A stretch of DNA of 64,000 bases from the NCBI RefSeq assembly GCF_040371085.1, contig NZ_JAMBMT010000001.1:1674001-1738000 (forward strand), written 5' to 3'. Source of the stretch: Psychrobacter sp. AH5. GTDB lineage: Bacteria; Pseudomonadota; Gammaproteobacteria; Pseudomonadales; Moraxellaceae. Shown one piece after another: positions 26,731 to 57,663 of this stretch. Each line of letters begins with the position of its first letter. The first letter of the stretch is position 1. The position numbers and the translations under genes are program-made. The notes below the pieces were generated by a model. It saw only the letters and a list, made by a program, of their open reading frames with translations, was not told the DNA's origin and searched no databases.

Positions 26731-26737
26731 CTATACG

Positions 26738-26773: not shown

Positions 26774-26822
26774 TTGCGTGAATTATTTATAAATTGGTCG
26801 AGTAATACTAGCGTCAAATAAA

Positions 26823-26845
26823 ATTTTGATACTATCTTGATACTT
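26823..26845. other. Candidate integrase arm-type site, left end
   Basis: Contains two copies of TTGATACT (TTTTGATACTATCTTGATAC), about 95 bases inside attL. A near-identical pair occurs at 57927-57948, about 135 bases inside attR. Paired sites inside both ends are what arm-type integrase binding sites look like. The role is inferred. Confidence 0.45.
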
Positions 26846-26912
26846 TGATGCATCTGTTATTTAACGTATTATAGTATTATTAACACGATAAATAATGCGG
26901 TACGGATGAGAT

Positions 26913-28190: not shown

Positions 28191-28269
28191 CTTCATATAA
28201 TTTTTTAAAGTTCTGTACAACTAAATAATCGATAGAACATATAACGACATTTTGATTAGGAGACATACT

Positions 28270-28584: not shown

Positions 28585-28681
28585 TTGCTTTCAAACTTAT
28601 ATAGTAATTATTGCAAAATCTACAGTAGTAAATTACATTTTATGATTTTTTATAAACAATCATATATGCCAATTATCCTGA

Positions 28682-28834
28682 TTAAACTGGTTCACTATCT
28701 CTAGTAACCCATTTACCAAACTCAAAACTCTCGTTATATTTGATTTTAAAACTGTTGTTTACACGGTAGACACATTCCGTATTAAGAGTTGTATTCGAAG
28801 TATAGAATTTTTCTGTATTAAGGAGCCCATCCCG
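28682..28834 (-). pseudogene. Orphan C-terminal gene fragment beside IS256
   Basis: A 50-codon open stretch on the minus strand that runs out of the IS256 end and stops at 28682. It reads as ordinary polar protein (for example NTECVYRVNNSFKIKYNESF). It has no start of its own and abuts the element, so it may be the 3' remnant of a gene cut by IS256 or by an IS-mediated deletion. The parent gene was not identified, and chance cannot be excluded. Confidence 0.3.
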
Positions 28835-28838
28835 AATT

Positions 28839-30108
28839 CTGTGTAACTGCCATTTAGATTAAATGCTTACTAATACGGTCATCAAACATAATCATAAAGC
28901 GATTCAGAGCAGACGTCCAGTTACGGATTGGCATCGACCACTTTTTGGATGCCTGCTGGGTGGCTAAGTACACCACTTTGAATGCTGCCTGATCAGATGG
29001 GAACACCTTACGCTTATTCACCGCCGTACGAATCACACTGTTTAATGATTCTATAGCATTGGTGGTATATATGACTTTTCTGATGTCTTTCGGATACTCA
29101 AAGAACACCGTTAGGCCCTCCCAGTTATTGCGCCAAGACTTAACCACGTGCGGGTAATCCTTACCCCAAGTCTCATCAAAGTGCTCAAGATTGGCCTCTG
29201 CTATCTCAAGCGTATCCGCACCGTAGATGGCTTTTAAATCAGCCGCTACGGCCTTTTTATCCGTCCACGGTACGAACTTCATTGAGTAACGCACCATGTG
29301 TACGATACACAGCTGAACCTGAGCGTTGGGGTAGACGGTGTTAATGGCATCAGGGAAGCCCTTTAAGCCGTCGACACAGGCAATGAGGATATCTTGTACC
29401 CCGCGGTTTTGTAGTTCAGTGAGAACACCCAGCCAGAACTTAGCCCCTTCATTCTCTGAGAGCCACATACCAAGCAGCTCTTTTTTACCGTTAAGAGCAA
29501 CACCTAGGGCTAAGTAAATGGCTTTGTTGATGATCTGCTTGTCTTGACGTACTTTGACGACGATGCAGTCTAAATAGACGATAGGATAAACACTGCTCAG
29601 TGGCCGGTTCTGCCAAGCGGTGATGTCGTCTAAGATATTATTGGTGACTCTTGAGACAAGAGAGCTTGAGATGTCGACATCGTAGAGCTCTTTGATGGTC
29701 TCTACAATCTCAGTCGTGGTTTGACCTTTGGCGTAAAAGAATATGATCTTGTCATCAAGACCTGAGATACGGGTTTGATGCTTACGCACGAGTGTAGGTT
29801 CAAACTCACCATCACGGTCTCTTGGAGTGGATATCTCAAGATCGCCTGTGTCACTGCGGACGGTCTTTTTAGTATGCCCATTGCGTTTATTTGGCTTATC
29901 TACTTTCTCATGCTTAGGATAGCCGAGATGGTCTTCCATCTCAGCTTCAAGGGCAGTGTCGATAAAGGATTGCATGAGCTGCTTTTGAAAGTCTTTGATG
30001 TCATCGAAGCTATTCATGCTACCAGCCATTTGCTCAGCCAGTTTCTTGATGTCAGTTTGGTTAGTCATTGCTTATTCTCCTGTTAGTGGATTATAAGCAG
30101 TTACACAG
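28839..30108 (-). mobile_element. IS256-family insertion sequence
   Basis: About 1.27 kb bounded by inverted repeats with a perfect core CTGTGTAACTGC (28839-28850) and its complement (30097-30108); the outer ends may extend about 8 bases further with mismatches. It contains one transposase gene. No matching 8-9 bp target duplication is visible under any end setting I tried. Confidence 0.85.
28854..30068 (-). CDS. IS256-family transposase
   Basis: A 404-residue DDE transposase of the Mutator/IS256 group. It has YPIVYLDCIVVKVRQD (first Asp), LIACVDGLKGFPDAI (second Asp), the C/H signature near VQLCIVHMVRYSMKFV, and TTNAIESLNSVIRTAVNKRKVFP (catalytic Glu). Full length with no frameshift, so the element may be active. 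A ribosome binding site (GGAG) precedes the ATG. Confidence 0.95.
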   Translation of the reverse strand: MTNQTDIKKLAEQMAGSMNSFDDIKDFQKQLMQSFIDTALEAEMEDHLGYPKHEKVDKPNKRNGHTKKTVRSDTGDLEISTPRDRDGEFEPTLVRKHQTRISGLDDKIIFFYAKGQTTTEIVETIKELYDVDISSSLVSRVTNNILDDITAWQNRPLSSVYPIVYLDCIVVKVRQDKQIINKAIYLALGVALNGKKELLGMWLSENEGAKFWLGVLTELQNRGVQDILIACVDGLKGFPDAINTVYPNAQVQLCIVHMVRYSMKFVPWTDKKAVAADLKAIYGADTLEIAEANLEHFDETWGKDYPHVVKSWRNNWEGLTVFFEYPKDIRKVIYTTNAIESLNSVIRTAVNKRKVFPSDQAAFKVVYLATQQASKKWSMPIRNWTSALNRFMIMFDDRISKHLI

Positions 30109-30111
30109 TTT

Positions 30112-31206
30112 TTAGGAAAGGCTCGTATTAAGACCTAAATGCTTTATAAAAAGCGGCTTAGTGAAAATTTTTTTTAAATAGGTACTATACTGACCATCTC
30201 TATCTATGACAAAACCACATTCAACACAAGTGTTGACTATAAAAACTTTGTTCAGTATTTCACTACGCACCTTTTTTATGGGTGAAAAAACATAATGCTT
30301 AGAAAAATGCGTATTAATAATTCTAAGCTCTTTATCGCTACAATTTTTTATTTTCTTAGAACGTACTTTATAGTCTTCTTTATATCTCACCTCAGAAATT
30401 ATCGGATTGGAGTAACCACATTTAGCGCAAGAGTCTTTACTCACCCCTAAAGTCATCTCAGTGATACCATTGGATTTAAATCTAAACTTTGTAGAGGTGA
30501 ATCGCTCATAAGGTATAAAAACTAGGCCTTGTGACACCAATCTTTGTATAAAACTCTCTAATGGTAGCGTAATAGGCTTAAATGAACGGTGGTTGTACCG
30601 ACTACTGTTGCTGTCTAGCCTATTCACGTTATAGATCATATAAGCTTGATTGTCCTGCGTCTTATTTCTATAAATAGAGAATACAGGTATGTCTTTCGTA
30701 CTATAGGCATAATCGCCTGTAATTGCATTAGTATCTTTAACTGAGCCACTTCTAAGCAACCACGCACACCTTACGCCTGATTGAGCATATTTTTCTTGTC
30801 TGCGTTTTGTTTCTATAAAAGCTTGAGGGCTCCATTGCACTTCAATGGCAATCTTAGCTTTGCCTTTCTCTGCATAAATATCAGCAATCCACTCCTCACC
30901 ACTTGGGGTAAGCCCCGCTTTTTCAACTTCTACAACCCAACCGTTTCTATCCAATTCTTTCATAACAAGATATTTGATATGCATGTGTTCGGCAGTTTCA
31001 CCACCAGTCGAGCAGTTAGAGTCTTTAGGTTTTGCCTTATGAGCGAAGAACTTCGTACCTAGCTTACTTGTCTTTAGTATTGCCTGATTACCACAGCAAG
31101 CCATATTGAAACTGGACGATTTATCTTCTTTTAAAACTATCCAATCTTTTAAGCTATATATAAAACTATAGATTTTTTCATCATTTTTTATGCAAATAAA
31201 AGCCAT
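30112..31206 (-). CDS. CoiA-like nuclease-domain protein, 3' end abuts IS256
   Basis: A 364-residue protein resembling the competence protein CoiA. An N-terminal zinc-like region (ACCGNQAILKTSKLGTKFFAHK) is followed by a GGETAEHMHIKYLVMKEL helix and a PD-(D/E)xK-type nuclease core with EWIADIYAEKGKAKIAIEVQWSPQ. The C-terminal half has CxxC pairs (CAKCGYSNP and CVECGFVID) that may bind zinc. CoiA proteins help recombination of incoming DNA; island homologues could instead serve defence (inference). The stop codon lies 4 bases from the IS256 core repeat, so the native C-terminus may have been shortened. Confidence 0.7.
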   Translation of the reverse strand: MAFICIKNDEKIYSFIYSLKDWIVLKEDKSSSFNMACCGNQAILKTSKLGTKFFAHKAKPKDSNCSTGGETAEHMHIKYLVMKELDRNGWVVEVEKAGLTPSGEEWIADIYAEKGKAKIAIEVQWSPQAFIETKRRQEKYAQSGVRCAWLLRSGSVKDTNAITGDYAYSTKDIPVFSIYRNKTQDNQAYMIYNVNRLDSNSSRYNHRSFKPITLPLESFIQRLVSQGLVFIPYERFTSTKFRFKSNGITEMTLGVSKDSCAKCGYSNPIISEVRYKEDYKVRSKKIKNCSDKELRIINTHFSKHYVFSPIKKVRSEILNKVFIVNTCVECGFVIDRDGQYSTYLKKIFTKPLFIKHLGLNTSLS

Positions 31207-31363
31207 GTTGACCCTTAATTATTTTGACTCTTGAGCTAGCAATTCATTCTTACATATGCTCATGCTTTCTATAGTGAATACGCTTTAAAAATAACATAGC
31301 GCTACTGGGATGAATTTTGCGCAGCCTCTAGGAACACAGCACGCAAGTAAAATTTATACCAGT

Positions 31364-31611
31364 AGCGTGTCTAAACTTATAACAGTTTTATTTTCAAAGG
31401 ACTATAAGATAATTGCACGTAATTAGGGTTTATCTTCTCCTAAGCCTTCATCTGATTTAGTATTTTACTTAGGTAACGTTGTGAATACTGGGGTTTGATC
31501 TCAAAGCGTGTCTGTTAGTGCTTTTCTTGCAATAACTTGTATTTTTAGTAGCGACTCAATAGATGCGGTATTGTAACTATTACTTATAGCTTATCCAATT
31601 GAAGACACGCT
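31364..31611. repeat. Dispersed AGCGTGTCT 9-mers, possible IS/MITE scar
   Basis: AGCGTGTCT occurs at 31364-31372 and 31505-31513 and in inverted form at 31603-31611. The 107-bp segment between the last two has the size and inverted ends of a small non-coding element, but the shared ends are too short for certainty. Confidence 0.3.
31454..31498 (+). repeat. Module-border repeat, copy A
   Basis: Reads ATTTAGTATTTTACTTAGGT, then a variable 9 bases, then ATACTGGGGT. It shares the TTTACTT..TTAGGT..AATAyyGGGGT pattern with copies at 40668, 40804 and 56125, all in the same orientation. Confidence 0.6.
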
Positions 31612-31700
31612 AGCCCTAGACTAAAGATGAAAAAATAGTTTATAAAACTAATAAATATGAACTAAAAGTTAGTATATGATTTTAACAAATAAGCATTTAT

Positions 31701-32180
31701 CTATTCTAATTCAGGATATAAAAATTGAGTCAACTCATAGATCTCATCTTCTGCCGCCATACCTTTTTTATCAGGATTTGGATAGAGAGCCGCTGTAAGA
31801 ATTAATCTAGGAAGCTGCCAATACTCAGCAAATACCTTCTCAAGCTCTTTTCTAAGAAATTCAAGCCAAAGTGCTACAGTCTCTTCGGGTGTATGAGGGT
31901 CTGGTATTTTGTAAATGAGAAAATCTGCATTAAGACAATACTCCATACGGAACGCAGCTGCCATACAGTCATGAAGCCACTGCAGGGTTCTATGGTCAAA
32001 ACCTCTCAGCCCATCACGTAAATCACTAAATTCCGTACGAACAGCAACCACCCTTTCAGCATGACGGTGTTTATCGATAGCAAAATCGATGATACGTAAG
32101 GCTTTTCCATAGCTGTCATGCTGGATCCATCCAATACGATCAGAATCACCGTGAAAACAACTACCAACTATCATTACCAA
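31701..32180 (-). CDS. Hypothetical protein at left edge of the restriction-modification module
   Basis: A 159-residue soluble protein of unknown family. Noticeable segments are VGSCFHGDSDRIGWIQHDSYGKALRI at the N-terminus, YCLNADFLIYKIPDPHTPEETVALWLEF in the middle and LTAALYPNPDKKG near the end. There is no signal peptide or membrane segment. It is divergent from the methyltransferase gene, with about 150 bp between. Being present only at this edge of the module, it could be an accessory or control protein of the system (inference). Confidence 0.55.
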   Translation of the reverse strand: MVMIVGSCFHGDSDRIGWIQHDSYGKALRIIDFAIDKHRHAERVVAVRTEFSDLRDGLRGFDHRTLQWLHDCMAAAFRMEYCLNADFLIYKIPDPHTPEETVALWLEFLRKELEKVFAEYWQLPRLILTAALYPNPDKKGMAAEDEIYELTQFLYPELE

Positions 32181-32334
32181 GTCCCATTAACAAAGTTTTA
32201 GTCTTATTATTTAAAATGATAAGAGTCTATCAACTCTCATTTAAAACACCTAACACTTCAAATACGATAAGATATGGCTATAATTGCACATTAGCCTGCT
32301 TATTTACACCCGTAATTCATCTACAGAGACAGCC

Positions 32335-34684
32335 ATGGCATTTAACCAAACCCAGTTTTTTGAAGATTTAGAAAAACTAACCGCTAAAGTTATTGATAAA
32401 AAAAATAAAGAAGACTTTATCTTTGATTTCCTAACACTGCTAGATGTCTCAAAGTCCACGATTACTTCTCTCAAAAAGAACGATAATCGTTTCAATGTAG
32501 CAGCCCATCCTGAAGCTGGCGAGGTTGCCAACAAGCATCGTATCTACTTCAAGCCTGTAGAGGAAGGTCAAGACCTTGCTAAAGCCCTGAGTGGGGTGAT
32601 GAACAGCCCAATCATCAATCAGCACAAAATCCGCATGATAATGGTGACGGATTTCGACACCGTACTGATTAACGACACCAAGTATGATGAGACCCTCGAC
32701 TGCGATTTTACTGACCTTTATAAGAACTATCATTTCCTATTGCCACTTGCCGGCCTAGAGCGTGCTCGTGAGTACTCAGAGCACCCTGCTGATGTGCAAG
32801 CCTCTGAAAAGATGGGGCGCTTGTTCGACCATATCCGCAAGCTCAACGAGTTTAATACTGCTGATGACTTGCATGCGCTCAATATATTTTTAACGCGACT
32901 ACTATTCTGTTTTTATGCCGAAGACACGGGTATTTTTAAAGCAGACCAGTTCTATGACGTGATTGATAGAACCACCAATATAGATGGCAGCGACGTCGAT
33001 AGCACACTGTTTGAGCTGTTCGAGGTTCTCGACTTACCTGAGTCTAGCAGCGAGCGTAGTGCCAAGCCTACTCATTTAAGTGCATTCCCCTATGTGAACG
33101 GCAGCTTATTTGAATATCAGTTCGCCATTCCTGAGTTTGATGCGCGGACCCGCCCTATCTTACTAGAGTGTGCACGTTTGAGCTGGGCCGAGATTAACCC
33201 TGATATTTTTGGTTCCATGTTTCAAGCGGTCATTGACCCTGAGCAGCGTGGCAGCTTAGGACAGCATTACACCAGTGTTAGCAATATCATGAAGGTCATA
33301 CAGCCGCTATTCTTAGACGAGCTACTTGCAGAGCTAGACACAGTCATAGCGCTAAGCCATGACAATCGCCATAAGAACAATAAAGCTGAGCGCCTAGATG
33401 CTCTACTTAAGCGTATCAGCCAAATCAAAGTATTTGACCCAGCTTGCGGATCAGGCAACTTCTTGATCATTGCCTATAAAGAGTTACGCAAACTAGAGAT
33501 TGATGTATTAAAAGCACAGCGCGACTTACTGGGCTCTAAAGACAACCTACTAGGTCTAGGCTTTGACAGTGTGGTCAGCTTAGATAATTTATACGGTATC
33601 GAGTATGACGACTTTGCCAGTCAAATAGCGCGTTTGTCGCTGTGGCTAGCTGAACACCAAATGAATGTACTATTCGAGCAAGAGTTCGGCGCATCTCAGC
33701 CTATGCTTCCGCTGAAAGATAGCGGACACATTGTTTATGGCAATAGCTTGCGTATCGACTGGAAGGAGGTATGTCCAAATAATGGCAGTGATGAGATTTA
33801 TATCATTGGTAATCCGCCATTTGGGGGTACTGGGAGTCGTAACGATGAGCAAACAGAGGATATGACGCAAGTATTTAAGGAGTTCAAAAATTTCAAATCT
33901 CTAGATTATGTTGCTTCTTGGTTTTGGAAAGGCTCACAGTATATTGCTAATTCTAATGCCGAACTGGCTTTAGTATCAACCAACTCTATTGCTCAAGGCG
34001 CTCAAGTATCTGCGTTATTTCCCCATATTTTCAATCTAAGTATTCATATTAGTTTTGCCTATCAAAGTTTCCCTTGGAAAAACAATGCTAAACATAATGC
34101 TGCTGTCCACGTAGTCATTATCGGGCTATCTGCAAAGATAAATAAGCTGAAAAGAATATATAAAGTTGTAGAGAACACCTGGCATTGCGAATCTGTAAAT
34201 AATATCAGCCCCTATTTGATTAAAGGTAGCAACCTAGCAATTGAAAGTAGGCGTCAACCTTTCTATGATGATTTACAACCTATGATACAAGGTAGCAAAG
34301 CTACCGACTTTGGAAACTTCTTTTTAAACCATAATGAAAGAGACGAGCTTCTTTTGATTGAGCCAAACTCTAAAAAATGGCTAAGAAAAACTATAGGTTC
34401 GGAAGAGTTTATTAATAATAAAGAACGATGGTGTTTATGGCTTAACGATATTACTGAAGACGAGCTCAATGAACTTCCAGAAATTAAGAGACGAATTGAA
34501 AATGTTAGAGAAAATAGGCTTATCAGTAAAAAGCTTGCTACTCAAAAGCTTGCTGCTACACCTCATAAATTTGACGAGATTAAACAACCTTTAGATGGAA
34601 ATTATATAGTTGCTCCTATTGTCTCTTCTGAACGTAGACGCTATATTCCCATGGGAATAGTAAGCTCAGATACTATAGCTACTA
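32335..34684 (+). pseudogene. MmeI-like DNA methyltransferase, N-terminal part (interrupted by IS630)
   Basis: The first 783 codons of a class I SAM-dependent DNA methyltransferase. The start is taken at MAFNQTQFFEDL (32335); an in-frame extension to 32284 has no support. Motif I is FDPACGSGNFLI near residue 367 and motif IV NPPF near 493, typical of N6-adenine enzymes. The layout (N-terminal domain, helical spacer, methyltransferase, target recognition) matches type IIL MmeI-like proteins. However, the N-terminal domain shows RIYFKPVEEGQDLAKAL where a D...ExK nuclease centre is expected, so it is probably not a nuclease. The frame runs 17 bases into the IS630 and stops. Joining this part to 35603-36036 after removing one TA restores a 927-residue ORF. 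Confidence 0.85.
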
Positions 34685-35600
34685 TAGTCAAGCCCACCTA
34701 AAAATGTTATAAATTAATTATCAAACCCAATTGTTATTATAAAGACCATGACTTACTCACTAGATTTTCGTAAACAAGTTCTTAAAAGTATAGATGATGG
34801 TATGACCTTTGCCGAGGCAGCTGAGTTCTATAATCTTAGCCCAACCACTATACAGAACTGGAAGAGACGTGTTCATAGTAAAACAAACAGGCAAACTAAA
34901 CCCTATAAAATACCAGATGACGTGCTACTTAATGATGTTAAAGAACATCCTGATGATTACCAGTATGAGCGAGCTCGTCGTTTAAACTGTAGTAAAACAG
35001 GCATTTATCATGCCCTAAAGCGACTTGGCATCAGTCAAAAAAAAGACCTTAGAGCATCCAAAAGCGTGTCCGATCAAAAGAGCGATATATCACAGTAAGC
35101 TTAATAGCTTTACGCAGCAAGGCTATCCCATCGTTTATATGGATGAAAGTGGCTTTGAGGCTGAAACTATTCGTCCTTATGGCTATGCACCGATTGGTAA
35201 GCCTTGTATCGATAGCTACAACTGGCAAGGTAAAAAGCGAACCAACGTTATCGGTGCTCTATATGAAAAGATGCTGTTTGCATTAGATTACTTTGAGACA
35301 AACATCAACAGCATCGTTTTCTATCACTGGTGCAAACACAAGCTAATCCCAAGTCTTAAAACCAAATGCGTGATTGTCATGGATAATGCCAGATCTCATA
35401 AGAGCAAACGCATTCAAAAGCTACTGAACAGGCACGGTCATCGTATTCTATGGCTGCCACCGTACAGCCCTGATCTGAACCCTATCGAGAAAAAATGGGC
35501 TCAGGTGAAGCTTCTACGCCAAGGTTGGATGGAAAATGACTTATCCAAATTGTTTCATGATATTTGCCCTAGTCATAACAATTTTATTTTGAACTGACTA
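34685..35600 (+). mobile_element. IS630-family insertion sequence inside the methyltransferase gene
   Basis: A 916-bp element with related ends (TATAGTCA on both, reading inward with the target TA) flanked by the TA duplication typical of IS630 (34683-34684 and 35601-35602). Removing the element with one TA rejoins the methyltransferase frame exactly. It holds one transposase gene split by a frameshift. Confidence 0.9.
34748..35597 (+). CDS. IS630-family transposase, split by a shift at an A8 run
   Basis: Two overlapping frames: 34748-35098 holds the helix-turn-helix part (MTYSLDFRKQVLKSIDDGMT, then FYNLSPTTIQNWKRR), and 35025-35597 holds the DDE catalytic part (YMDESGFEAETIRPYG, VIVMDNARSHKSK, LPPYSPDLNPIEKKWA). 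The frames meet at eight A residues (35037-35044); reading it as seven gives a continuous SQKKTLEHP junction. Either polymerase slippage on the A run makes the full enzyme, as suspected for related elements, or this copy is dead. The protein would be about 280 residues. Confidence 0.85.
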
Positions 35601-35602
35601 TA

Positions 35603-36036
35603 ACCTTCTGCAAATAATACCTAATGGTAATATGTATGAGTTTGGAATATTGAATTCTACAACTCATAATGACTGGATGAGAACTGTTAGTAGTCGTTTA
35701 AAAAGTGATTATCGTTATCTCAACACACTTGTATACAACACCTTCCCCTTCCCTGATGCCACTGACGAGCAAAAAAACAATATAGAAAATCTTGCAGAAG
35801 AAATCCTACTCGCCAGAGCCAGTAATGCTGGCATGACTCTCGCAGAGCTATACGATCCAGAGAAGATGCCTGAGGATTTAAAACAAGCGCATAGCAACCT
35901 CGATGATGCGGTAGACAAGCTGTATCGTCCGCAAGGCTTTACCAATACCGAAGAGCGTTTGGCGCATTTGCTGGCACGTTATGAGCAGCTTATCGAAGCG
36001 GAAAAACAGAGCAAAGGTAAAAAGAAAGCTAAGTAG
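35603..36036 (+). pseudogene. MmeI-like DNA methyltransferase, C-terminal part
   Basis: The 3' end of the interrupted methyltransferase. In the restored frame the junction reads SDTIATNLLQIIPNGNMYEF, then LNSTTHNDWMRTVSSRLKSDYRY and NTFPFP, the conserved end of the target-recognition domain and the start of the helical tail of MmeI-like enzymes. The tail continues with IENLAEEILLARASNAGMTLAELYDPEKMP and ends at 36036. From 35632 it could be translated as a 134-residue fragment but would have no activity alone. Confidence 0.85.
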
Positions 36037-36106
36037 CTTATTTGGTTATTTGGCATCAATATCCATACAAAAACAACATCAAACCCCTTATAAAGAGCAT
36101 TCTCTT

Positions 36107-36724
36107 ATGATTCCTAAAGTCTTATCAAGTATAGCCTTAGCTGCACTACTCGTGTTTTCTATGGGCCAAGCATCAGCCGTGCCACAAAGCGAGCTCATAT
36201 CGCTAAAGGGCAAAAATGGTCAAGACCTTCCTGAGGGCGATATGTTCATAATGTTTGCTTGGATGGAGGATGGCTGTATCGGAGACGGGCCAATTTATAG
36301 TTCTATCAATGAAAATCATAATAAATTCATTAGTAAAACTATGAAAATGAAGACACTTACAAAACCAAATAAAAATGATGAAATCTATGAGTTTTCTATA
36401 GCTCCGCGCTCTCAATGGGCCCCTGGTTATAGCCCACTAATGAAAGATGTGAGTATTCTTACCAATCTTGAATATACTGAATATCATATTAAATTTGCAA
36501 GTGGTGTCAAATACCGCGAACAGCCCATAGCAGAATATCACTATAAGTTTAGACCAGAATCTGAAGGTGGCGAATACGTTCTTAAGTTTGCTAAAAACGC
36601 AGATATGCAAAGTGTTTGGAAACATTTCAAAACACGTCAGACATCAGACTATATGGATGACGGTTTTTATGACTCAAAAGCTAGGTTTGATCGTAATAAT
36701 AATACGATAACTTGTGTTTACTAA
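36107..36724 (+). CDS. Putative exported protein inside the restriction-modification module
   Basis: A 205-residue protein with a clear signal peptide (MIPKVLSSIALAALLVFSMG, then QASA before the cut). The ORF opens at 35981, but that part overlaps the methyltransferase end, so the Met of the signal peptide is the likely start. The mature protein is beta-rich, with only two cysteines that could form one disulfide (WMEDGCIGDGP and the C-terminal TITCVY). No family recognised. It sits 70 bases after the methyltransferase stop and 83 before the helicase in the same direction. A periplasmic protein is out of place between cytoplasmic DNA enzymes, so it may be a passenger or a novel component. Confidence 0.6.
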   Translation: MIPKVLSSIALAALLVFSMGQASAVPQSELISLKGKNGQDLPEGDMFIMFAWMEDGCIGDGPIYSSINENHNKFISKTMKMKTLTKPNKNDEIYEFSIAPRSQWAPGYSPLMKDVSILTNLEYTEYHIKFASGVKYREQPIAEYHYKFRPESEGGEYVLKFAKNADMQSVWKHFKTRQTSDYMDDGFYDSKARFDRNNNTITCVY

Positions 36725-36807
36725 TTTCACACTATTGTTATGATAAATGAGCTGTATTTTTACTACGCTACAGATTTACGAGCATCTCTACTTATAATGA
36801 ATCTACT

Positions 36808-39009
36808 ATGACTGCAACTGTTAATATCCTAAATCAAACTTATGCCCGCACGGGTCAAAGCAAAACACATAATTCGATGGGCATGCGTGAAATGCAGGCA
36901 CGTGCATTCGAGAAGCGTCATAGCCAATACTTACTCATTAAGTCGCCGCCTGCCTCTGGTAAGTCACGCGCCATGATGTTCTTGGCGTTAGACAAGCTCA
37001 TCAACCAAGGTGTCAAAAAAGTCATCATTACCGTGCCAGAGATGAGTATTGGTAAATCCTTTAAATCAACAGCGCTAAGTGATTATGGTTTCTTTGCCGA
37101 TTGGGAAGTAGCAGATCGCTATAACTTATGCTTAAGTCTTGCTCAAAGTGATACTCGTAAGACTGCCATCTTCTCAGAATTTATCACTTCAGATGTCAAT
37201 GATAACTCTCTTCCCCAAGTATTAGTCTGCACGCATCATAGCTTCCGATATGGCTTTGACAAAGTGATTGAGGACGGCTGTAGCATAGCGTTATTTAACG
37301 ATGTACTTATCGGTATTGATGAATTCCATCACGTCTCAGCGGATGAATCTAACCGCTTGGGTGCCATACTCGATGGCATTATGACGCAGACTAGCGCGCA
37401 TATTGTGGCAATGACTGGCTCCTACTTCCGTGGCGACTCAATACCTATCTTGTCAGATAGCGATGAAGAAAAGTTTGATAAGGTGACTTATACCTATTAC
37501 GAACAGCTGAATGGTTATGAGCACCTAAAGTCATTAGGACTTGGCTATCACTTTTATAAAAAATCATTTTTTGATGCCTTAAATGAATGCTTGGATACCA
37601 GTAAAAAGACCATTATTCACATCCCTAACGTCAATAGCTTAACCGCTGAGACAGACAAGTATGAGACCGTTGGTCGTATCATAGATATTATAGGTGAAAG
37701 TGAATCTCGTGATGAGAATACTGGCGTTATCACCATACGATCACATGATGGCAGGCGCTTACTCCTCGCTGACTTAGTGACTGATGACGCCATACGGGTA
37801 AATACACAGGCTTACTTAGCGGATATTACTTCTCGTGATCAGATGGATATCATCGTAGCCCTTGGGATGGCAAAAGAGGGCTTTGACTGGGAGTATTGTG
37901 AGCATGTATTAACCATTGGCTATCGCGGTTCTCTAACCGAGGTGGTGCAGATTATTGGGCGCTCAACCCGTGATAGCGCGGGCAAACACCATGCACAGTT
38001 CACCAACCTAATCGCTGAGCCAGAAGCGGATAAGTCTGAGGTGACAAGCTCTGTCAATGACTTATTAAAAGCCATTACTTTATCACTACTAATGGAGCAG
38101 GTGCTCAAGCCTAACATCAGCTTTAAGCGTCGTAGTGAACTGGATATATTAGGCACGTTAGACTTGCCGGCAGGTACCGTTATCATTGATGACACCGTAA
38201 ACCCGCCCTCTGATCGAGTCATGAAGATACTTAACCAAGACCGTGACGAGATATTGGCACAGCTAGCCCAAAATACAGATAGCATTAAAAAGTATATCGC
38301 TGCCGAAACCAATAACGTCGAGACCGAATCGGTATCGGATAACGTTATCCCCAGTATTATTCGTAGTAAGTACCCAGCGCTGGAAGAAAATGAAGTACGG
38401 CAAGTACAAGAAGGCGTCATGCAGTATATGGCCATCAACCGCCAAGGCGGCGTTATTGACGGCAAAGACATTCCTGAAGATGCCATTATCGAAAATGAAC
38501 GCTGTTTCATTAAGCAAGGTCATGAATATATAGATATCACTACTTTAAATGCTGAACGAAAAAGTCAGCTCAATGAAAACGACATTATTAAAGAGCGCCA
38601 CCTACCATCTGACGCAAAAATATATAACCCTAAAACCAAATCAAGCAGCAGCAATGACTCAAATCCTAGCAACGGCTTTGTGAAGGTTGGCAGTAAGTTT
38701 GTCAATGTAAACAACCTTCCCATCGATCTTGTGAAATCGGTCAACCCATTTCATGATGCGTATGAAGTCCTTTCTAGGACAGTCGATAAAGAAGTACTAC
38801 AAACCATCAATGACGTCGTTCATGCCAGCCGTTCGACCGTAACTGAGGCAGAAGCGGTCCTAATGTGGCCAAAGATAGTGGCGTTTATAAAGAATAAAGG
38901 ACGTCAGCCAAATAGAAACTCAGAAGATGCTATCGAGCGTCGTATGACTGAAGTTATCTCCTATGTCAGAAACCAAAAAGCCAAGCGAGAAGCCAACAGT
39001 CATGATTAA
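36808..39009 (+). CDS. DEAD/DEAH-type superfamily 2 helicase of the restriction-like module
   Basis: A 733-residue SF2 helicase/translocase. Motif I is SPPASGKS at 46-53, motif II DEFHH at 171-175, motif III-like MTGSYFRGD, and motif VI QIIGRSTRD near 381-389. The C-terminal half is unlike common restriction subunits and ends with FIKNKGRQPNRNSEDAIERRM (693 on), a helicase-associated-type segment. The nuclease gene overlaps its last codons, so they are translationally coupled. With the methyltransferase and GIY-YIG nuclease it fits a restriction complex in which this protein translocates DNA (inference). Confidence 0.85.
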   Translation: MTATVNILNQTYARTGQSKTHNSMGMREMQARAFEKRHSQYLLIKSPPASGKSRAMMFLALDKLINQGVKKVIITVPEMSIGKSFKSTALSDYGFFADWEVADRYNLCLSLAQSDTRKTAIFSEFITSDVNDNSLPQVLVCTHHSFRYGFDKVIEDGCSIALFNDVLIGIDEFHHVSADESNRLGAILDGIMTQTSAHIVAMTGSYFRGDSIPILSDSDEEKFDKVTYTYYEQLNGYEHLKSLGLGYHFYKKSFFDALNECLDTSKKTIIHIPNVNSLTAETDKYETVGRIIDIIGESESRDENTGVITIRSHDGRRLLLADLVTDDAIRVNTQAYLADITSRDQMDIIVALGMAKEGFDWEYCEHVLTIGYRGSLTEVVQIIGRSTRDSAGKHHAQFTNLIAEPEADKSEVTSSVNDLLKAITLSLLMEQVLKPNISFKRRSELDILGTLDLPAGTVIIDDTVNPPSDRVMKILNQDRDEILAQLAQNTDSIKKYIAAETNNVETESVSDNVIPSIIRSKYPALEENEVRQVQEGVMQYMAINRQGGVIDGKDIPEDAIIENERCFIKQGHEYIDITTLNAERKSQLNENDIIKERHLPSDAKIYNPKTKSSSSNDSNPSNGFVKVGSKFVNVNNLPIDLVKSVNPFHDAYEVLSRTVDKEVLQTINDVVHASRSTVTEAEAVLMWPKIVAFIKNKGRQPNRNSEDAIERRMTEVISYVRNQKAKREANSHD

Positions 39010-40351
39010 ACTTGATGAGATCTATCAAAGTCGTGAGTACAAAACGCTAGAAGATATTTTTTCTAATGACAGTACCGGTCTATTAGACGACATAAAGCCC
39101 GTTACCAAAAGCTCAGCGAATAACAGCGTTTTAGCGCAGCAGTTTGACACTATCAACCTTTTTATCGATCAACAGGGGCGCGTGCCTAGTAGCAGTGCCA
39201 ATGATATTAATGAAAAGATAAATGCTCGCCTGTTAGCTACCATACAAACCAACCACGCAAACTCGCAAGAACTGCTAGCCTTAGATAAGCATGGTTTATT
39301 GGCTGCTCAAAGTACTGATTCTGCCCTACCTGACAAACCGACACTCTCAGACAAAGGCGTGAACAATAAGGATGATGGGTCTGAAAAGGCAGTCAGCGCT
39401 AGCACTAAAGAAGCTGAGCCGGTAACCGAGGCTGTTAGCGAGCCACCTGTTATTAATAGTCTAGATGATATCTTTAACAGCGATGACCTAGGAATTTTTG
39501 ACAACATCCATTCTGAAATCTTAGTCAGTGATAGTCAGAGCAATACACGTGCCAGCTACGATCAATACAATGACGAAGATATAGCCAGCCGGTTCGAATG
39601 TAAGGACTTTTATAAGTTTGAAGCAACCTTTGAGCGCATATCTAAAGCTATTCAAATGGGTGCTTTTGCTAAAACCAACTTTTCATCAGTGAAAGATATC
39701 AACATTGGCAGTGTATTCGTTCTAAACGGCATGCTTTGCTATGTGGCTAATATATATAAAGCAGAAGCTAGAAAAAATACTCGTAGTCAAGAAAGACTAC
39801 GCTTAATACTCTCTAATGGTACAGAGTCAAATATGCTCACCCATTCATTAGCTACCGCTCAATATAAATATGAAAACAGCTATCAGTTGTTAATTACTGA
39901 TCCTGACTGGATGGATGATGAATTGGCCAAAAACTTCGGAGATGATCGTCAGCTTACTGGTGTCATTTATGTCGCTAAGCTAACTGATACGCCAAGCAAT
40001 TTAGCACACTATAAGCACCTGCATAAAGTAGGTTTCTCTACCCTTACAGGAGAGGCTCGCACAAAGCACTCGATTAGAGATACTGCCTTCTTGCAACAAC
40101 CAGTAGATATCATTGCTGAGTGGCAGGTCTATGATGCCAATGCGCGTAGTGTAGAAGGTGTACTGCATGCTTTCTTCTATGATCAAAGGGTCAAGGTATC
40201 TTCAAAAGCAGCAAACGATAACCTCTACAAGGCTACAGAGTGGTTTAACGTTCCCCTTGATGAGATCGAAAAAGCCATTAATTTGGTTATCGCTGGTGAC
40301 ATTAAAAACTATCGAATGGATGGTGCGGCTGGCAAGGTGGTTTTGAAGTAA
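38963..40351 (+). CDS. GIY-YIG (T5orf172-like) nuclease domain protein
   Basis: A 462-residue protein whose C-terminal third carries a GIY-YIG core: GVIYVAKL at 333-340, HKVGFST at 354-360, conserved arginines near 366-372 and the metal Glu in SVEGVLH near 398. The N-terminal half is flexible and acidic with a duplicated motif (TLEDIFSNDSTGLLDDI at 28-44 and SLDDIFNSDDLGIFDNI at 166-182) and a GRVP segment (67-75) like the helicase tail. It overlaps the helicase gene by 47 bases; an internal ATG at 39002 that overlaps the helicase stop is the alternative start. It probably cuts DNA loaded by the helicase when the site is unmethylated (inference). Confidence 0.82.
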   Translation: MSETKKPSEKPTVMIKLDEIYQSREYKTLEDIFSNDSTGLLDDIKPVTKSSANNSVLAQQFDTINLFIDQQGRVPSSSANDINEKINARLLATIQTNHANSQELLALDKHGLLAAQSTDSALPDKPTLSDKGVNNKDDGSEKAVSASTKEAEPVTEAVSEPPVINSLDDIFNSDDLGIFDNIHSEILVSDSQSNTRASYDQYNDEDIASRFECKDFYKFEATFERISKAIQMGAFAKTNFSSVKDINIGSVFVLNGMLCYVANIYKAEARKNTRSQERLRLILSNGTESNMLTHSLATAQYKYENSYQLLITDPDWMDDELAKNFGDDRQLTGVIYVAKLTDTPSNLAHYKHLHKVGFSTLTGEARTKHSIRDTAFLQQPVDIIAEWQVYDANARSVEGVLHAFFYDQRVKVSSKAANDNLYKATEWFNVPLDEIEKAINLVIAGDIKNYRMDGAAGKVVLK

Positions 40352-40667
40352 TGAGCGTTTGCAGAATTAATCTGTATCCATAACTCAAAATTGTTAGATG
40401 TGATTTCCTATAACATTGCGGGTCTGCAAATCGCATTTATAGATGTACTGATTACTTACCAAAATGTGAAAATGCTATATCACTAGTTCATCTGAGCCTT
40501 TCCATACAAGGATTTCACTACAAATGGCTAATAATAAGATTTCTAAGGTGGCTTTGTTAAGCTCGGGGTATCTTATTATATTAGATGTATGCCCTTATTT
40601 TTTAGACATTAGAGACATCAAATAAAGGCTTCCAACACTACTATAGGTAGCGTTAGGAACTTTTATC

Positions 40668-40712
40668 TGATTTGGTATTTTACTTAGGTGAGTTTATTAA
40701 TATTGGGGTATC
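40668..40712 (+). repeat. Module-border repeat, copy B
   Basis: Reads TGATTTGGTATTTTACTTAG, then GTGAGTTTATTAATATTGGG. It is closest to copy A (31454), which starts with the same ATCTGATTT-GTATTTTACTT lead. Confidence 0.6.
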
Positions 40713-40715
40713 AAC

Positions 40716-40845
40716 ATCTGCATATGCCATGGAACAACCTTACTCTGATAAGTCAGAAAAGCTCTATATGCTATTATTTATATAGCATATAGGGCTGAGC
40801 TATGAAATTTACTTTTCTTAGGTGACGCTATTAATATCGGGGTTT
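40716..40845 (+). repeat. Module-border repeat, extended copy C
   Basis: About 130 bp matching 56037-56167 at roughly 70% by eye, including AAAAGCTCTAyAyGCTATTA, then ATTTACTTTT-TTAGGTGA and a GGGGT end. The core (40804-40843) is the third copy of the border motif. Confidence 0.6.
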
Positions 40846-40946
40846 GTCATTCAATTACTTAGCCCTAGCAACGATGATTCAAGGCTTAAATAAGCGTACC
40901 ATTTGCCTTATCAAGTTTATGCTAAGCACAGTAACTTTCATGTGTT

Positions 40947-42206
40947 CTAGCGAAAATCAAAGAACTCATAATGAATGTTTTTGGCGGGAATGCCATACTC
41001 TTTCATGAGTGACTGTACATTTTGTAGCAGTCCTTTGGGGCCGCAGAAGCTGATTTGAACCTCCTTTGGATTGACTTCACTGGTTGCTTTGCGAATTGCA
41101 TCAGCCATGGCATCGCTACCACTCGGATTGGCCACAAAATCGGCACCAGATTGATCTGTTACTTCTTTCATACGCTCAACACTAGGAAAAGCGCGTGAGG
41201 GACTGAAGCAATAAACCAAAGTAGCCTGTTCAAAATGACCGACCGTTTTATCCTCTAACCATGAAATAAAGGGTGAGATTCCTACTCCAGCCCCAATCCA
41301 GATTTCACGCTCTGCGTTCGGCTTGCGTTTGAAATGACCATAAGGGGCATAAATATCAGCCAACATACCCACTTTAGCTTGTTCACTAAGCTTTTTTGTG
41401 TAGTCGCCTAATGCTCGAATCACAAAATGAATGTGTCCAGTATCTGAGGGCGCACTGGCTATGGTAAAGGGATGCGGCTCACGCAAACCTGATTCTTTAA
41501 GAGAGATAAAAGCGAATTGACCGGCTTTAAAGGGGAATTTACTATCCACTGGCTCAAATTCCAAGTGTATAGCCGCTTTGCCATGAGACATAGACACGAG
41601 CTTATATTCGCCAACTTTGGCAACGAAAGGGTACAGTAGCATTTTGTACAGCGCGGCAATCACCCCTAAACCACAAATTAGCGCTAACCAAATGCCCGCT
41701 GGGCTAGTCAAGGTAATAGGTGACTTAAAGCTCAACCAATGCAGTATGACGATTAAAAAAAGTGGCCCTGAGAACTTATGTAACCAACGCCAGTTGCCAT
41801 AGGGAATTTTTCTGTTCAATGCCAACATCACAATTAGACCTAAGGCGACAATGCTGAGTTGTCGGATCAAACGCGTCCAATACTTGGACAATTCTAAAAT
41901 GGGCGCAAGATCCCAAGAGTCTAGTTTGGCTTTAAAAACGAAATGATAGACAGCAAAAACCAGTGCCCATATGGCAATCCATTTATGAGCTTCATACACT
42001 CTATCTAGACCACCAAATAATCTTTCAACAACATGCCAACGACTAGCAAGTATGCATGAGATTGCCATACATGCTAAAGCTGAAGCACCCAGTATTAGGC
42101 TGGCTGTTGCTGCTGTTGCCCATGTCTCAGAGGGGATTTGCATGAGTACAGTGACTGAAGTAATTGCTACGATGCCAACGATAGCTTGCCAGACCTTTAA
42201 GGCCAT
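40947..42206 (-). CDS. Ferric-reductase-like membrane protein fused to FAD/NAD(P) reductase
   Basis: A 419-residue inner-membrane protein. About six membrane helices in the first 210 residues carry His pairs (YEAHKWIAIWALVFAVYH and WRWLHKFSGPLFLIVILHWL) for two b-type hemes. A cytosolic FNR module follows, with FAD motif HPFTIASAPSD, NAD(P) motif GAGVGISPFISWLED and CGPKGL near the end. It carries electrons from NAD(P)H across the membrane. It is divergent from the cytochrome b/two-component operon; a candidate response-regulator box (42303-42319) with TATCAT 13 bases away on this strand suggests joint control. Confidence 0.88.
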   Translation of the reverse strand: MALKVWQAIVGIVAITSVTVLMQIPSETWATAATASLILGASALACMAISCILASRWHVVERLFGGLDRVYEAHKWIAIWALVFAVYHFVFKAKLDSWDLAPILELSKYWTRLIRQLSIVALGLIVMLALNRKIPYGNWRWLHKFSGPLFLIVILHWLSFKSPITLTSPAGIWLALICGLGVIAALYKMLLYPFVAKVGEYKLVSMSHGKAAIHLEFEPVDSKFPFKAGQFAFISLKESGLREPHPFTIASAPSDTGHIHFVIRALGDYTKKLSEQAKVGMLADIYAPYGHFKRKPNAEREIWIGAGVGISPFISWLEDKTVGHFEQATLVYCFSPSRAFPSVERMKEVTDQSGADFVANPSGSDAMADAIRKATSEVNPKEVQISFCGPKGLLQNVQSLMKEYGIPAKNIHYEFFDFR

Positions 42207-42302
42207 AATAGACTCCCTAAAATTATTTCATTAAAGTTAAGAAAGCTTGTTTTACCAAGTTTAGATTTTTTGAAAAAGCATGAATGATACTACTACTTAA
42301 TT

Positions 42303-42319
42303 CTTAACTGAGTCTTAAG
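42303..42319. promoter_or_regulatory. Candidate response-regulator box 1
   Basis: CTTAAC-TGAGT-CTTAAG, two hexamers with an 11-bp period, as for PmrA/QseB-type regulators. On the minus strand TATCAT (42284-42289) lies 13 bases away, pointing to the ferric-reductase gene. Confidence 0.5.
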
Positions 42320-42381
42320 GTAGCATATGACCTCAGATATGCCACTATATCCACTACCTAAGTTTTTACATTCTTTGATTT

Positions 42382-42398
42382 CCTAAGCTCGCCTTAAG
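42382..42398 (+). promoter_or_regulatory. Candidate response-regulator box 2
   Basis: CCTAAG-CTCGC-CTTAAG, 11-bp period. TAATAA (42411-42416) follows after 12 bases on the plus strand, so it would serve the cytochrome b/two-component operon. Confidence 0.5.
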
Positions 42399-42528
42399 CT
42401 TCATTTGTTGTAATAACTGTAAGACAGACACTGCGACATCTAGTCTGCTTACGATATCTCGCTTCGCTTTAGTTTCTTGCAGCCAAATATCGTTAATAAA
42501 CAAATGTATTCTTAAGGGAGTGACGATC

Positions 42529-43137
42529 ATGAGCCAAAATAACACCACCAATTTGATCCCTAATTCTGGCGTACCGTCATCCAGCATCCCCAAGATGAGA
42601 CAAGTACGAGTTTGGGATATTTTAGTTAGAATCACCCACTGGACAGTGGCAGCGGGTATTATTGCCAATCTACTCTTTACTGAAGACGGTAGCGATCTAC
42701 ACGCCTATGTAGGCTATACCGTGGTAGGATTAGTGGTGATACGCTTGCTTTGGGGTTTAATTGGCACTCGATATGCACGCTTTACTAATTTCTTTCCCAC
42801 ACCAACACGACTTAAGTATCATATATCAGACTTAAGTGTTCGCCGTGTTGATGAGCAGCATCTTGGGCATAATCCATTGGCAGCCCTTATGATACTATCG
42901 TTATGGGCAGTAATTATAGGATTAGGAATAACCGGTTATCTAATGGAATCAGAAATCATTGGTAATGAAGATTTTCTTGAAGATGTGCATGAGCTATTAG
43001 CAAACAGTTTATATCTACTCGTTCCTTTGCATATTATCGCTGCGATTGCCATGAGTTACTGGCAACGCCAAAACCTGATTAAATCGATGATAACCGGCAA
43101 TAAAATGGTGACAGATGAACCGTCAAATATGAAATAA
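42529..43137 (+). CDS. Cytochrome b561/b-type membrane protein
   Basis: A 202-residue protein with four membrane helices of the cytochrome b/b6 (hydrogenase-type b cytochrome) group. Heme-ligand histidines appear in RITHWTVAAG, DLHAYVGY, DVHELLAN and VPLHIIAAI. AAGGGAG 8 bases upstream sets the ATG at 42529; an in-frame GTG nine bases earlier is less likely. It is the first gene of a probable operon with the response regulator 36 bases downstream. Such proteins pass electrons between quinol and periplasmic partners. A genetic link to a two-component system suggests it is part of the sensed or controlled redox pathway. Confidence 0.85.
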   Translation: MSQNNTTNLIPNSGVPSSSIPKMRQVRVWDILVRITHWTVAAGIIANLLFTEDGSDLHAYVGYTVVGLVVIRLLWGLIGTRYARFTNFFPTPTRLKYHISDLSVRRVDEQHLGHNPLAALMILSLWAVIIGLGITGYLMESEIIGNEDFLEDVHELLANSLYLLVPLHIIAAIAMSYWQRQNLIKSMITGNKMVTDEPSNMK

Positions 43138-43173
43138 ACGAAGCGGCAGAATAAATAGAGCGATGGAAAACAC

Positions 43174-43851
43174 ATGTCACGTATATTATTAATAGAAGAC
43201 GATAGCAGCATTGCTGAAGGTATTATTCTCGGCTTAAAAAGCCATGGCATGATGGTCGATTGGTTCAGTGATGCTAAGCAAGGTGAAATGGCGCTGCAAG
43301 AGGATATGTTTGATGCGGTGCTGCTTGATTTAACCTTGCCAAAAGGGGACGGCATGACCGTGCTGCAAAATTGGCGCGCCAAACACATTGATACGCCGGT
43401 TTTAATTATCACTGCACGCGACGCGATTGCCAATCGGGTGGCAGGACTCAATGTGGGCGCTGACGATTATTTGGTTAAGCCGTTTGCATTAGATGAAGTT
43501 GTTGCTCGTCTGCAAGCTTTGATGCGACGCAGTCAGGGACGTAGCCAACCTGAAATCCGTTATGGCGAGGTTGCCTATCAGCCTCATAATCAGCAACTAA
43601 CGTATCAAGGTCAAGTGATTGAATTGACCATCAAAGAAGTGGCAATCTTGGAGCAAATGCTGACCCATCCCAAACAAATACATAGTAGAGCGAGCTTAGA
43701 AGATAAACTGTATGGATGGCAACAAGATATCGAAAGTAATGCCATTGAAGTGCACATTCATCACTTACGTAAAAAACTGGGCAATGACTTTATCTTGACC
43801 AAACGCGGTATCGGCTACTATCTCAATCCCGCTTATAACAGTCATGAATGA
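43174..43851 (+). CDS. OmpR-family response regulator
   Basis: A 225-residue regulator. The receiver domain has acidic residues EDD (about 7-9), phospho-acceptor Asp near 51 (AVLLDLTLPKGDG), and Lys in DDYLVKPF. The C-terminal winged helix contains EVHIHHLRKKLG and TKRGIGYYL. It belongs to the PmrA/QseB-like branch, whose DNA sites are paired TTAA-centred hexamers, and such sites occur upstream of this operon and three other units in the module. The cognate kinase gene is now separated from it by an IS982 copy. Confidence 0.93.
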   Translation: MSRILLIEDDSSIAEGIILGLKSHGMMVDWFSDAKQGEMALQEDMFDAVLLDLTLPKGDGMTVLQNWRAKHIDTPVLIITARDAIANRVAGLNVGADDYLVKPFALDEVVARLQALMRRSQGRSQPEIRYGEVAYQPHNQQLTYQGQVIELTIKEVAILEQMLTHPKQIHSRASLEDKLYGWQQDIESNAIEVHIHHLRKKLGNDFILTKRGIGYYLNPAYNSHE

Positions 43852-43900
43852 TATCCTTGATTACCTTTAGCTTATCTATCTTGTCTATTTTATTTAATAT

Positions 43901-44880: not shown

Positions 44881-44905
44881 TTAATATATAAGTACACGTG
44901 AGCCT

Positions 44906-46402: not shown

Positions 46403-46412
46403 ACCTTACTTT

Positions 46413-57655: not shown

Positions 57656-57663
57656 GAATTATG

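What the first reader, a model, noticed from the sequence alone, without database searches (positions are those of the whole stretch)
32335..40351. Candidate undescribed restriction-like system: MmeI-type methyltransferase, helicase and GIY-YIG nuclease
Type IIL enzymes like MmeI carry their own nuclease domain, but here the N-terminal domain lacks a visible D...ExK centre. The nuclease seems to be supplied in trans by a GIY-YIG protein coupled to an SF2 helicase gene by a 47-base overlap. The arrangement resembles neither DISARM, BREX nor classic type I/III systems as I know them. It may be a separate class in which the methyltransferase scaffold gives specificity and the helicase and GIY-YIG pair gives cleavage.
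Basis: partly seen in the sequence, partly recalled or inferred. Interest (0 to 1): 0.72.

Follow-up and report, generated by a model that had tools for sequence, protein, structure and literature searches.

The report
Broken MmeI-methylase/helicase/GIY-YIG restriction cassette
This is a Psychrobacter copy, with its methylase gene broken by an insertion sequence, of a widespread three-gene DNA-restriction-like cassette already reported in Bacillus subtilis, whose way of cutting DNA is still unproven as far as I could read.

Summary
An MmeI-type methyltransferase gene (32335-36036, split by an IS630-like element), an SF2 helicase gene (36808-39009) and a GIY-YIG/T5orf172 gene (ORF 38963-40351) lie in order on one strand, inside a tRNA-Leu-integrated element (about 26673-58141). 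Of 80 loci fetched by helicase similarity, 73 show all three genes in order; the other 7 end close to the helicase. It is not undescribed: it is the dnmA-yeeB-yeeC cluster of B. subtilis. Most likely it works like a Type I enzyme: the methyltransferase chooses and marks the site, the helicase translocates, the GIY-YIG protein cuts only with the methyltransferase. My evidence (swapped recognition domains, methyltransferases broken beside intact helicase and nuclease genes) fits this but proves no cutting; B. subtilis tests found no restriction. The window's copy is probably inactive for both marking and cutting.

The parts
32335..34684 (+). 5' piece of the MmeI-type gamma-class N6-adenine methyltransferase gene (N-terminal domain without the MmeI PD-ExK residues, helical spacer, methyltransferase domain with DPACGSGNF and NPPF, most of the target recognition domain); the ORF runs on to 34701 inside the insertion
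   Evidence: Pfam MmeI_N/hel/Mtase/TRD; 5hr4 alignment; catalytic residues checked
34683..35602 (+). IS630-like insertion sequence (transposase in two overlapping frames, 34748-35098 and 35025-35597) that breaks the methyltransferase gene
   Evidence: terminal inverted repeats, HTH_Tnp_IS630; the only full copy in the genome, with two partial matches of 75% and 80% identity at C1:713888 and C1:716210
35632..36036 (+). 3' piece of the methyltransferase gene: end of the target recognition domain and MmeI_C domain
   Evidence: Pfam MmeI_TRD and MmeI_C
36107..36724 (+). cargo gene between methyltransferase and helicase: 205-aa protein with a signal-peptide-like N-terminus (read by eye; longest ORF 35981-36724, 247 aa), no Pfam or PADLOC match
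   Evidence: present in this place in L046 and L047, no match in L045; family in 25 of 105 genomes of the genus
36808..39009 (+). SF2 helicase/translocase (YeeB-like) with a C-terminal GRxP...E module
   Evidence: DEAD/ResIII/Helicase_C below cut-off; conserved motifs
39002..40351 (+). GIY-YIG / T5orf172 nuclease (YeeC-like) with an N-terminal GRxP...E module (longest ORF starts at 38963)
   Evidence: MUG113 and T5orf172; G, Y, K, G, R, E of the GIY-YIG centre each in 88 of 89 rows
31701..32180 (-). 159-aa protein gene, divergent from the methyltransferase; a possible lineage-specific accessory
   Evidence: found in 4 of 199 family genomes, each time beside this methyltransferase variant; the G008 copy is cut by a stop
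26673..58141 (.). integrated element holding the cassette: tRNA-Leu end, integrase 26913-28190, and a 58-bp direct repeat of the tRNA 3' part
   Evidence: tRNA; integrase; 58-bp exact repeat 26673-26730 / 58084-58141

Best explanation
[quoted passage not shown] In the intact form the MmeI-type protein reads a short asymmetric site and methylates one adenine (shown for B. subtilis DnmA in print, not here). Its N-terminal domain has lost the MmeI nuclease centre, so it probably cannot cut by itself. On unmethylated DNA it recruits the SF2 helicase, which translocates along DNA with ATP (inferred), and the GIY-YIG protein makes the cut (inferred). A shared module (GRxP...E) in the helicase tail and the nuclease N-terminus may hold these two together (inferred). 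Because cutting needs the methyltransferase as its specificity subunit, loss of the methyltransferase is not lethal. In this genome an IS630-like insertion near the end of the recognition domain has most likely switched off both modification and restriction, leaving intact helicase and nuclease ORFs.
For: Domain anatomy. PD-ExK residues together in 0 of 83 helicase-linked methyltransferase rows against 8 of 9 stand-alone MmeI-like ones of the same family, with no helicase or GIY-YIG match in the 9 stand-alone stretches; the two sorts fall on two sides of one branch, support 99/97. Synteny: 73 of 80 helicase-anchored loci, the other 7 cut near the helicase. GIY-YIG centre conserved in 88 of 89 rows. 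Purifying selection: dN/dS 0.07-0.12 for helicase and nuclease against L045 and L046 (L047 saturated). The target recognition domain alone is strongly diverged (76-89 of 173 identical; methyltransferase core 210-239 of 265), as in systems that change specificity for cutting and marking together. Methyltransferase broken with helicase and nuclease ORFs intact in 6 of 25 assessable loci (window, L045, L049, L216, L218, L219) against 0 of 25 with a broken nuclease. As cited in PMC9973331, deletion of the dnmA and yeeB homologues in Vibrio crassostreae raised sensitivity to some phage subclades (no effect with others).
Against: In B. subtilis, deletions of dnmA, yeeB or yeeC changed neither phage killing nor plaquing for three phages, dnmA loss did not affect transformation by a plasmid from E. 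coli, and the DnmA site is not avoided in phage genomes (PMC7261158, PMC9973331); the authors call it a relic. No passage I read shows cleavage by any member. The 6-against-0 count is weak (p 0.03 with equal odds, 0.19 when weighted by gene length), the loci were chosen by helicase, and broken methyltransferases could equally mean dead or silent operons or assembly errors. 43 of 83 methyltransferase rows carry a D-x7-(D/E)-x-K string further along the N-terminal domain (window residues 106-116), so a shifted nuclease centre is not excluded. The N-terminal model has good Foldseek matches only to MmeI over 148 columns and weak ones to DrdV. Four loci have helicase but no methyltransferase match in the 570-1883 bases left of it (L052, L094, L097, L143): cargo there, or a lost methyltransferase.
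Confidence: 0.7

Rival explanations
1. A relic: the methyltransferase family persists as an orphan regulator or by drift, and helicase plus nuclease no longer restrict in most hosts, including this one.
For: B. subtilis phenotypes; methyltransferase broken in 6 of 25 loci; decayed remnants in relatives (G174 helicase lacking its first 165 residues and with one stop, and no methyltransferase match; short GIY-YIG pieces with stops in G062, G128 and G190).
Against: Nuclease active-site residues kept in 88 of 89 rows, from loci under many of the 13 phylum labels; low dN/dS in two close pairs; diverged recognition domains; the helicase matches 263 plasmid records, 148 of them over at least 80% of its length (the neighbours were checked on only two); the Vibrio phenotype cited in PMC9973331.
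Confidence: 0.2
2. A BREX-, DISARM- or MADS-like system in which the methyltransferase marks self and helicase plus nuclease block phage DNA without site-directed cutting.
For: Lower-scoring hits of the methyltransferase to DrmMI (E 2.3e-23), mad2 (4.5e-16) and PglX (1.8e-8) models; the DnmA site is not avoided by phages.
Against: No BREX or DISARM partner among the ten proteins scanned: the helicase gives only marginal PbeA, Cas3 and SngC hits and the GIY-YIG protein none; the best methyltransferase model by far is type IIG (E 1.2e-252).
Confidence: 0.08
3. A Type II-like system in which the GIY-YIG protein recognises and cuts the same site on its own.
For: It carries the only intact, recognised nuclease centre in the cassette.
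Against: Loss of the methyltransferase should then kill the cell, yet it is broken beside an intact nuclease ORF in 6 of 25 loci; B. subtilis lacking dnmA grows normally; the recognition domain diverges without a matching change in the nuclease domain.
Confidence: 0.03

Closest known systems
Bacillus subtilis dnmA (yeeA)-yeeB-yeeC
   Same: MmeI homologue without the endonuclease motif, followed by SF2 helicase and T5orf172/GIY-YIG protein in the same order; conserved cluster in other bacteria (PMC7261158, PMC9973331, passages). B. subtilis is also a positive control for MmeI_Mtase and T5orf172.
   Different: Here the methyltransferase is broken by an IS, a signal-peptide-like cargo gene sits between methyltransferase and helicase, and the cassette lies in a tRNA-Leu element. 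I had no B. subtilis protein to align directly.
Type IIL enzyme MmeI (PDB 5hr4)
   Same: Homologous to the methyltransferase chain: spacer, methyltransferase, recognition and C-terminal domains.
   Different: MmeI carries D70/E80/K82 and cuts alone; the window protein lacks them and has separate helicase and nuclease genes.
Type I restriction-modification (HsdRMS)
   Same: Proposed logic: translocase and cutting depend on the modification/specificity unit; toxin-like cargo genes within the operon, as described for some R-M operons (PMC3710099, passages). That Type I enzymes exchange recognition domains is recalled.
   Different: No HsdM or HsdS match of weight; specificity and methylation in one MmeI-type chain; nuclease is a separate GIY-YIG protein.
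BREX and DISARM
   Same: A gamma-class adenine methyltransferase together with other defence genes.
   Different: No PglZ, BrxC, BrxL, DrmA or DrmC hit for the three proteins in the tables shown.

Membership tests
dnmA-yeeB-yeeC cluster | MmeI-type methyltransferase lacking the PD-ExK centre | tested here: met
   (gene split by an IS in the window)
dnmA-yeeB-yeeC cluster | SF2 helicase gene downstream, same strand | tested here: met
   (one cargo gene lies between them in the window)
dnmA-yeeB-yeeC cluster | T5orf172/GIY-YIG gene next downstream with intact centre | tested here: met
dnmA-yeeB-yeeC cluster | Direct sequence relationship to the B. subtilis proteins | tested here: inconclusive
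   family-level only: B. subtilis rings for PF20473 and PF10544
dnmA-yeeB-yeeC cluster | Active m6A methyltransferase | not testable with these tools
   the window's gene is split by an IS; no methylome data
Type IIL / IIG (MmeI) | PD-(D/E)xK nuclease centre in the same chain | tested here: not met
   0 of 83 linked rows with D, E and K at the MmeI positions; caveat: D-x7-D/E-x-K string at 106-116 in 43 of 83
Type I R-M | HsdR/HsdM/HsdS subunits | tested here: not met
   one weak Type I methyltransferase model (E 1.8e-6) among the best 25 of 36 PADLOC families shown for the MmeI-type protein; helicase gives ResIII at E 1.7e-4, below cut-off
Type I R-M | Cutting dependent on the methyltransferase and ATP translocation | not testable with these tools
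   only indirect: broken methyltransferases tolerated
BREX | PglZ and BrxC beside PglX | tested here: not met
   not among the ten proteins scanned from 26913 to 40351
DISARM | DrmA helicase with DrmB or DrmC | tested here: not met
   helicase has no DrmA hit

The most novel reading that the evidence does not exclude
The helicase-linked MmeI-type methyltransferases form a separate, bacteria-wide class of ATP-dependent restriction enzymes: a nuclease-dead MmeI chain acts as modification and specificity unit, an SF2 translocase and a GIY-YIG cutter act in trans, and the translocase tail and cutter N-terminus dock through copies of one shared module. The gap between methyltransferase and helicase is a standing slot for second-line toxins (Fic, DarT-like with macro domain, RhuM, Schlafen-type, Abi_2).
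Probability: 0.45. Interest if true: 0.6.

Novelty: new member of a known kind. Interest (0 to 1): 0.38.

Why it matters
The cassette occurs under 13 phylum labels, several of them from metagenome-assembled genomes, and its helicase matches 263 plasmid records, yet PADLOC (2023) scores its methyltransferase as a type IIG restriction enzyme and has only marginal or no hits for its helicase and nuclease, so such loci are probably miscalled as one-gene type IIG enzymes. The two experimental accounts that I met disagree: a relic in B. subtilis, and phage resistance in a Vibrio, the latter second-hand. The link shown here (nuclease residues lost where helicase and GIY-YIG are present, kept where they are absent) gives a simple rule for telling the two kinds apart and a direct biochemical prediction.

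Tried and rejected
Rejected: DISARM, BREX or HsdRMS membership. Rejected: independent Type II cutting by the GIY-YIG protein (see rivals). Considered: a shifted nuclease centre at residues 106-116 of the methyltransferase; 43 of 83 linked rows fit D-x7-(D/E)-x-K, both acidic positions also exist in MmeI, the lysine is in 50 of 83; left open. Considered: the 47-base overlap as unusual coupling; the comparative start at 39002 makes it an ordinary 8-base overlap. Considered: synonymous divergence as proof of recognition-domain swapping; it sets the recognition domain apart in two pairs (L045, L046) but not against L047, where the rest of the gene is saturated too. Led nowhere: promoter and terminator scan (32 promoter-like sites against 26.0 expected); Foldseek of the GIY-YIG protein model (pLDDT 79.2; no match at E 0.001 or better; a short stretch resembles EF-P domain I only at E 0.11); PDB sequence searches of nuclease and helicase (nothing significant); phage records (2 partial hits). 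Papers: PMC7261158, PMC9973331, PMC4833311 and PMC3710099 were seen as passages; PMC12839542 was searched for five terms without a hit; PMC12707154 gave one passing mention of DnmA as an orphan methyltransferase; Morgan et al. 2009 is not held; the Vibrio crassostreae work is known to me only through PMC9973331.
Full report
What is there. The window is G000:C1:1674001-1738000 of a 3.24-Mb genome. From 32335 to 40351 lie, on one strand, an MmeI-type methyltransferase gene in two pieces, a cargo gene, an SF2 helicase gene and a GIY-YIG/T5orf172 gene. The methyltransferase is split by an IS630-like element with inverted repeats at 34683-34710 and 35575-35602. Upstream are an integrase gene and a tRNA-Leu, and the last 58 bases of that tRNA are repeated exactly at 58084-58141, so the cassette rides in an integrated element of about 31 kb.

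Nuclease centre. In MmeI the catalytic residues are D70, E80 and K82; changing any of them abolishes cutting (PMC4833311, passage). Aligned to 5hr4, the window protein has none of the three. In an alignment of 83 helicase-linked methyltransferase rows (window, 12 intact relatives and one fragment from the same family, 69 loci of the wide scan whose N-terminus was covered; a few rows are the same locus from two collections) 0 of 83 have all three at these positions. I checked the reverse in the same bacterial family: among its strongest MmeI_Mtase matches (over 260 bits) 15 lie in the cassette, one more is a contig-end piece of a cassette genome (G145, not used), and 9 distinct ones do not lie in a cassette; weaker matches were not examined. 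Of these 9, 8 keep D, E and K; the ninth (L189) lacks that part in its reading frame. None of the 9 has a helicase or GIY-YIG match in the stretch fetched (two stretches are cut by contig ends). In a tree of 87 rows the 9 stand-alone and 78 linked methyltransferases are the two sides of one branch (99/97; the root is unknown). A caveat: 43 of 83 linked rows have a D-x7-(D/E)-x-K string later in the domain. AlphaFold2 models the N-terminal part (302 aa) with mean pLDDT 92.6 and pTM 0.59; Foldseek matches MmeI over 148 columns (E 3e-9), presumably the spacer because MmeI's nuclease domain is disordered in 5hr4, and DrdV weakly (E 5e-3).

Co-occurrence. In 199 genomes of the family, 19 have a helicase match at E 0.001 or better (two of them marginal) and 24 a GIY-YIG match. 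Of 19 regions fetched around these, 15 have methyltransferase, helicase and GIY-YIG in this order on one strand; L048 is a remnant without methyltransferase, L051 and L063 start or end inside the cassette, and L052 has 570 bases left of the helicase without a methyltransferase match. The 5 without a methyltransferase match have 34-1883 bases left of the helicase; L094, L097 and L143 (1214-1883 bases) show no methyltransferase piece there, so either cargo lies between or it is missing. The 2 without a nuclease match have 46 and 385 bases right of the helicase. These 80 were chosen by similarity to this helicase, so the figures hold for this helicase subfamily. In a thinner sample of the class, 13 of 369 genomes, the window's included, have the helicase; I fetched 11 of the 12 others (G452, a 118-aa piece, was left out), and the 10 not cut by a contig end have all three genes.

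Working parts. The GIY-YIG residues G333, Y336, K355, G357, R366 and E398 (numbered from 38963) are each kept in 88 of 89 rows. The helicase motifs are invariant in 16 of 16 family rows. The nuclease N-terminus carries a module (FxxI..F....GR.P....E) that in 7 of 15 family loci is a separate 91-101-aa ORF between helicase and nuclease and in 73 of 78 wide-scan loci lies in the same frame as the nuclease (2 separate, 3 without a hit). It resembles the helicase tail: hhalign probability 90.7, pairwise E 1.2e-6, against 0.1 for one control comparison of the tail with the methyltransferase N-terminal domain. Docking through this module is my inference.

Specificity. Against the three nearest relatives the recognition domain (residues 611-783) is 76-89 of 173 identical, while the methyltransferase core is 210-239 of 265 and the N-terminal domain 144-154 of 170. 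Recognition-domain dS is 2.8 and 1.9 against L045 and L046, where the rest of the methyltransferase has 0.70 and 1.00; against L047 (1.7) the rest is saturated, so that pair does not tell. Replacement of the recognition domain by recombination is the likely cause, as expected if one domain sets the site for both marking and cutting.

Natural knock-outs. Among 25 loci where the methyltransferase can be judged (window, 14 of the family, 10 of the class; L057 is cut by its contig), it is broken in 6: the window (IS), L045 and L049 (in-frame stops), L216 (frameshift), L218 (in-frame stop) and L219 (deletion across the recognition domain). Helicase and nuclease ORFs are intact in all 25, but the loci were chosen by helicase. 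Six against zero for the nuclease gives p 0.03 with equal odds and 0.19 when weighted by gene length. In the wide set 2 of 75 methyltransferases are split (L112, L132); L112 carries 21 copies of CTGC that put the two halves in different frames, the hallmark of a phase-variable gene. These cases argue against a nuclease that cuts unmethylated self DNA on its own, but silent operons or assembly errors would look alike.

What is known. PMC7261158 and PMC9973331 (passages) describe B. subtilis DnmA as an MmeI homologue without the endonuclease motif, flanked by yeeB (helicase) and yeeC (T5orf172/GIY-YIG); they report m6A at GACGAG, conserved order in other bacteria, no effect on transformation or on three phages, and cite both a Type I-like proposal (Morgan et al. 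2009) and a Vibrio crassostreae study in which deletions raised sensitivity to some phages. So the architecture is known, and the window adds a member. In six searches for a later or named system no other paper among the rows listed had a title or abstract start about this cluster; I did not open those with passing term counts, and the library holds open-licence papers only.

Cargo slot. In 20 of 75 wide-scan loci more than 400 bases separate methyltransferase and helicase. I scanned 41 ORFs from this gap (1 window, 5 from family loci, 35 from 19 of the 20 wide-scan loci; some may not be genes): hits include Fic (5), Schlafen AlbA_2 (5), RhuM (3), Abi_2 (3), AAA_15, PIN and FitA-like antitoxin (1 each), from the first 25 of 32 families shown (single loci). 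On Moraxella osloensis pYHS1 the gap holds RelB/YafQ and a DUF4433 plus macro-domain pair; on Vibrio pSEA1 it is empty. Toxins inside R-M operons are a described theme (PMC3710099, passages), a single search, listed nothing on this for the present cluster.

Verdict. Ordinary in kind, informative in detail: a broken member of a known, under-characterised restriction-like cluster. Mechanism as stated in Best explanation; marking is shown in print for a relative, everything about cutting is inferred.

Noticed in passing
26673-58141: Integrated element flanked by a 58-bp exact repeat of the tRNA-Leu(caa) 3' part; besides the cassette it carries a ferric-reductase-like oxidoreductase, a sensor kinase, ApbE, cytochrome c and amine-oxidase-like genes. 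In several same-genus genomes (for example G085, G128, G219) the tRNA end is followed at once by DNA matching about 58294-58305 onward, so the right edge may lie some 150 bases further on.
   Followed up: partly
31701-32180: 159-aa gene, divergent from the methyltransferase, found in 4 of 199 family genomes, each beside this close methyltransferase variant; no Pfam match.
   Followed up: partly
35981-36724: Signal-peptide-like protein family (25 of 105 genomes of the genus) sitting inside the cassette of the window, G077 (two copies) and G008; a secreted protein in a restriction operon is odd.
   Followed up: partly
L112:5676-5759: Tract of 21 CTGC copies between the methyltransferase and recognition domains of a Candidatus Anaerobiospirillum MAG, leaving the gene out of frame: likely phase variation of this methyltransferase; it was the only tract of 4-base or 5-base or 6-base units with 4 or more copies that one search listed in the three genes of the wide-scan loci.
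   Followed up: partly
L212:2517-4867 (Moraxella osloensis pYHS1): RelB/YafQ and DUF4433/macro-domain (DarTG-like, name recalled) genes lie between methyltransferase and helicase; other loci have Fic, RhuM or Schlafen-type genes there.
   Followed up: partly
L064 (G000:C3, 24104 bases): The contig with a stand-alone MmeI-like enzyme holds the same gene twice, 12052 bases apart, which is half the contig length: probably a 12-kb plasmid assembled as a dimer.
   Followed up: no
30112-31206: Protein with a CoiA-type nuclease-like domain next to an IS256-type transposase gene (28854-30068), upstream of the cassette.
   Followed up: no
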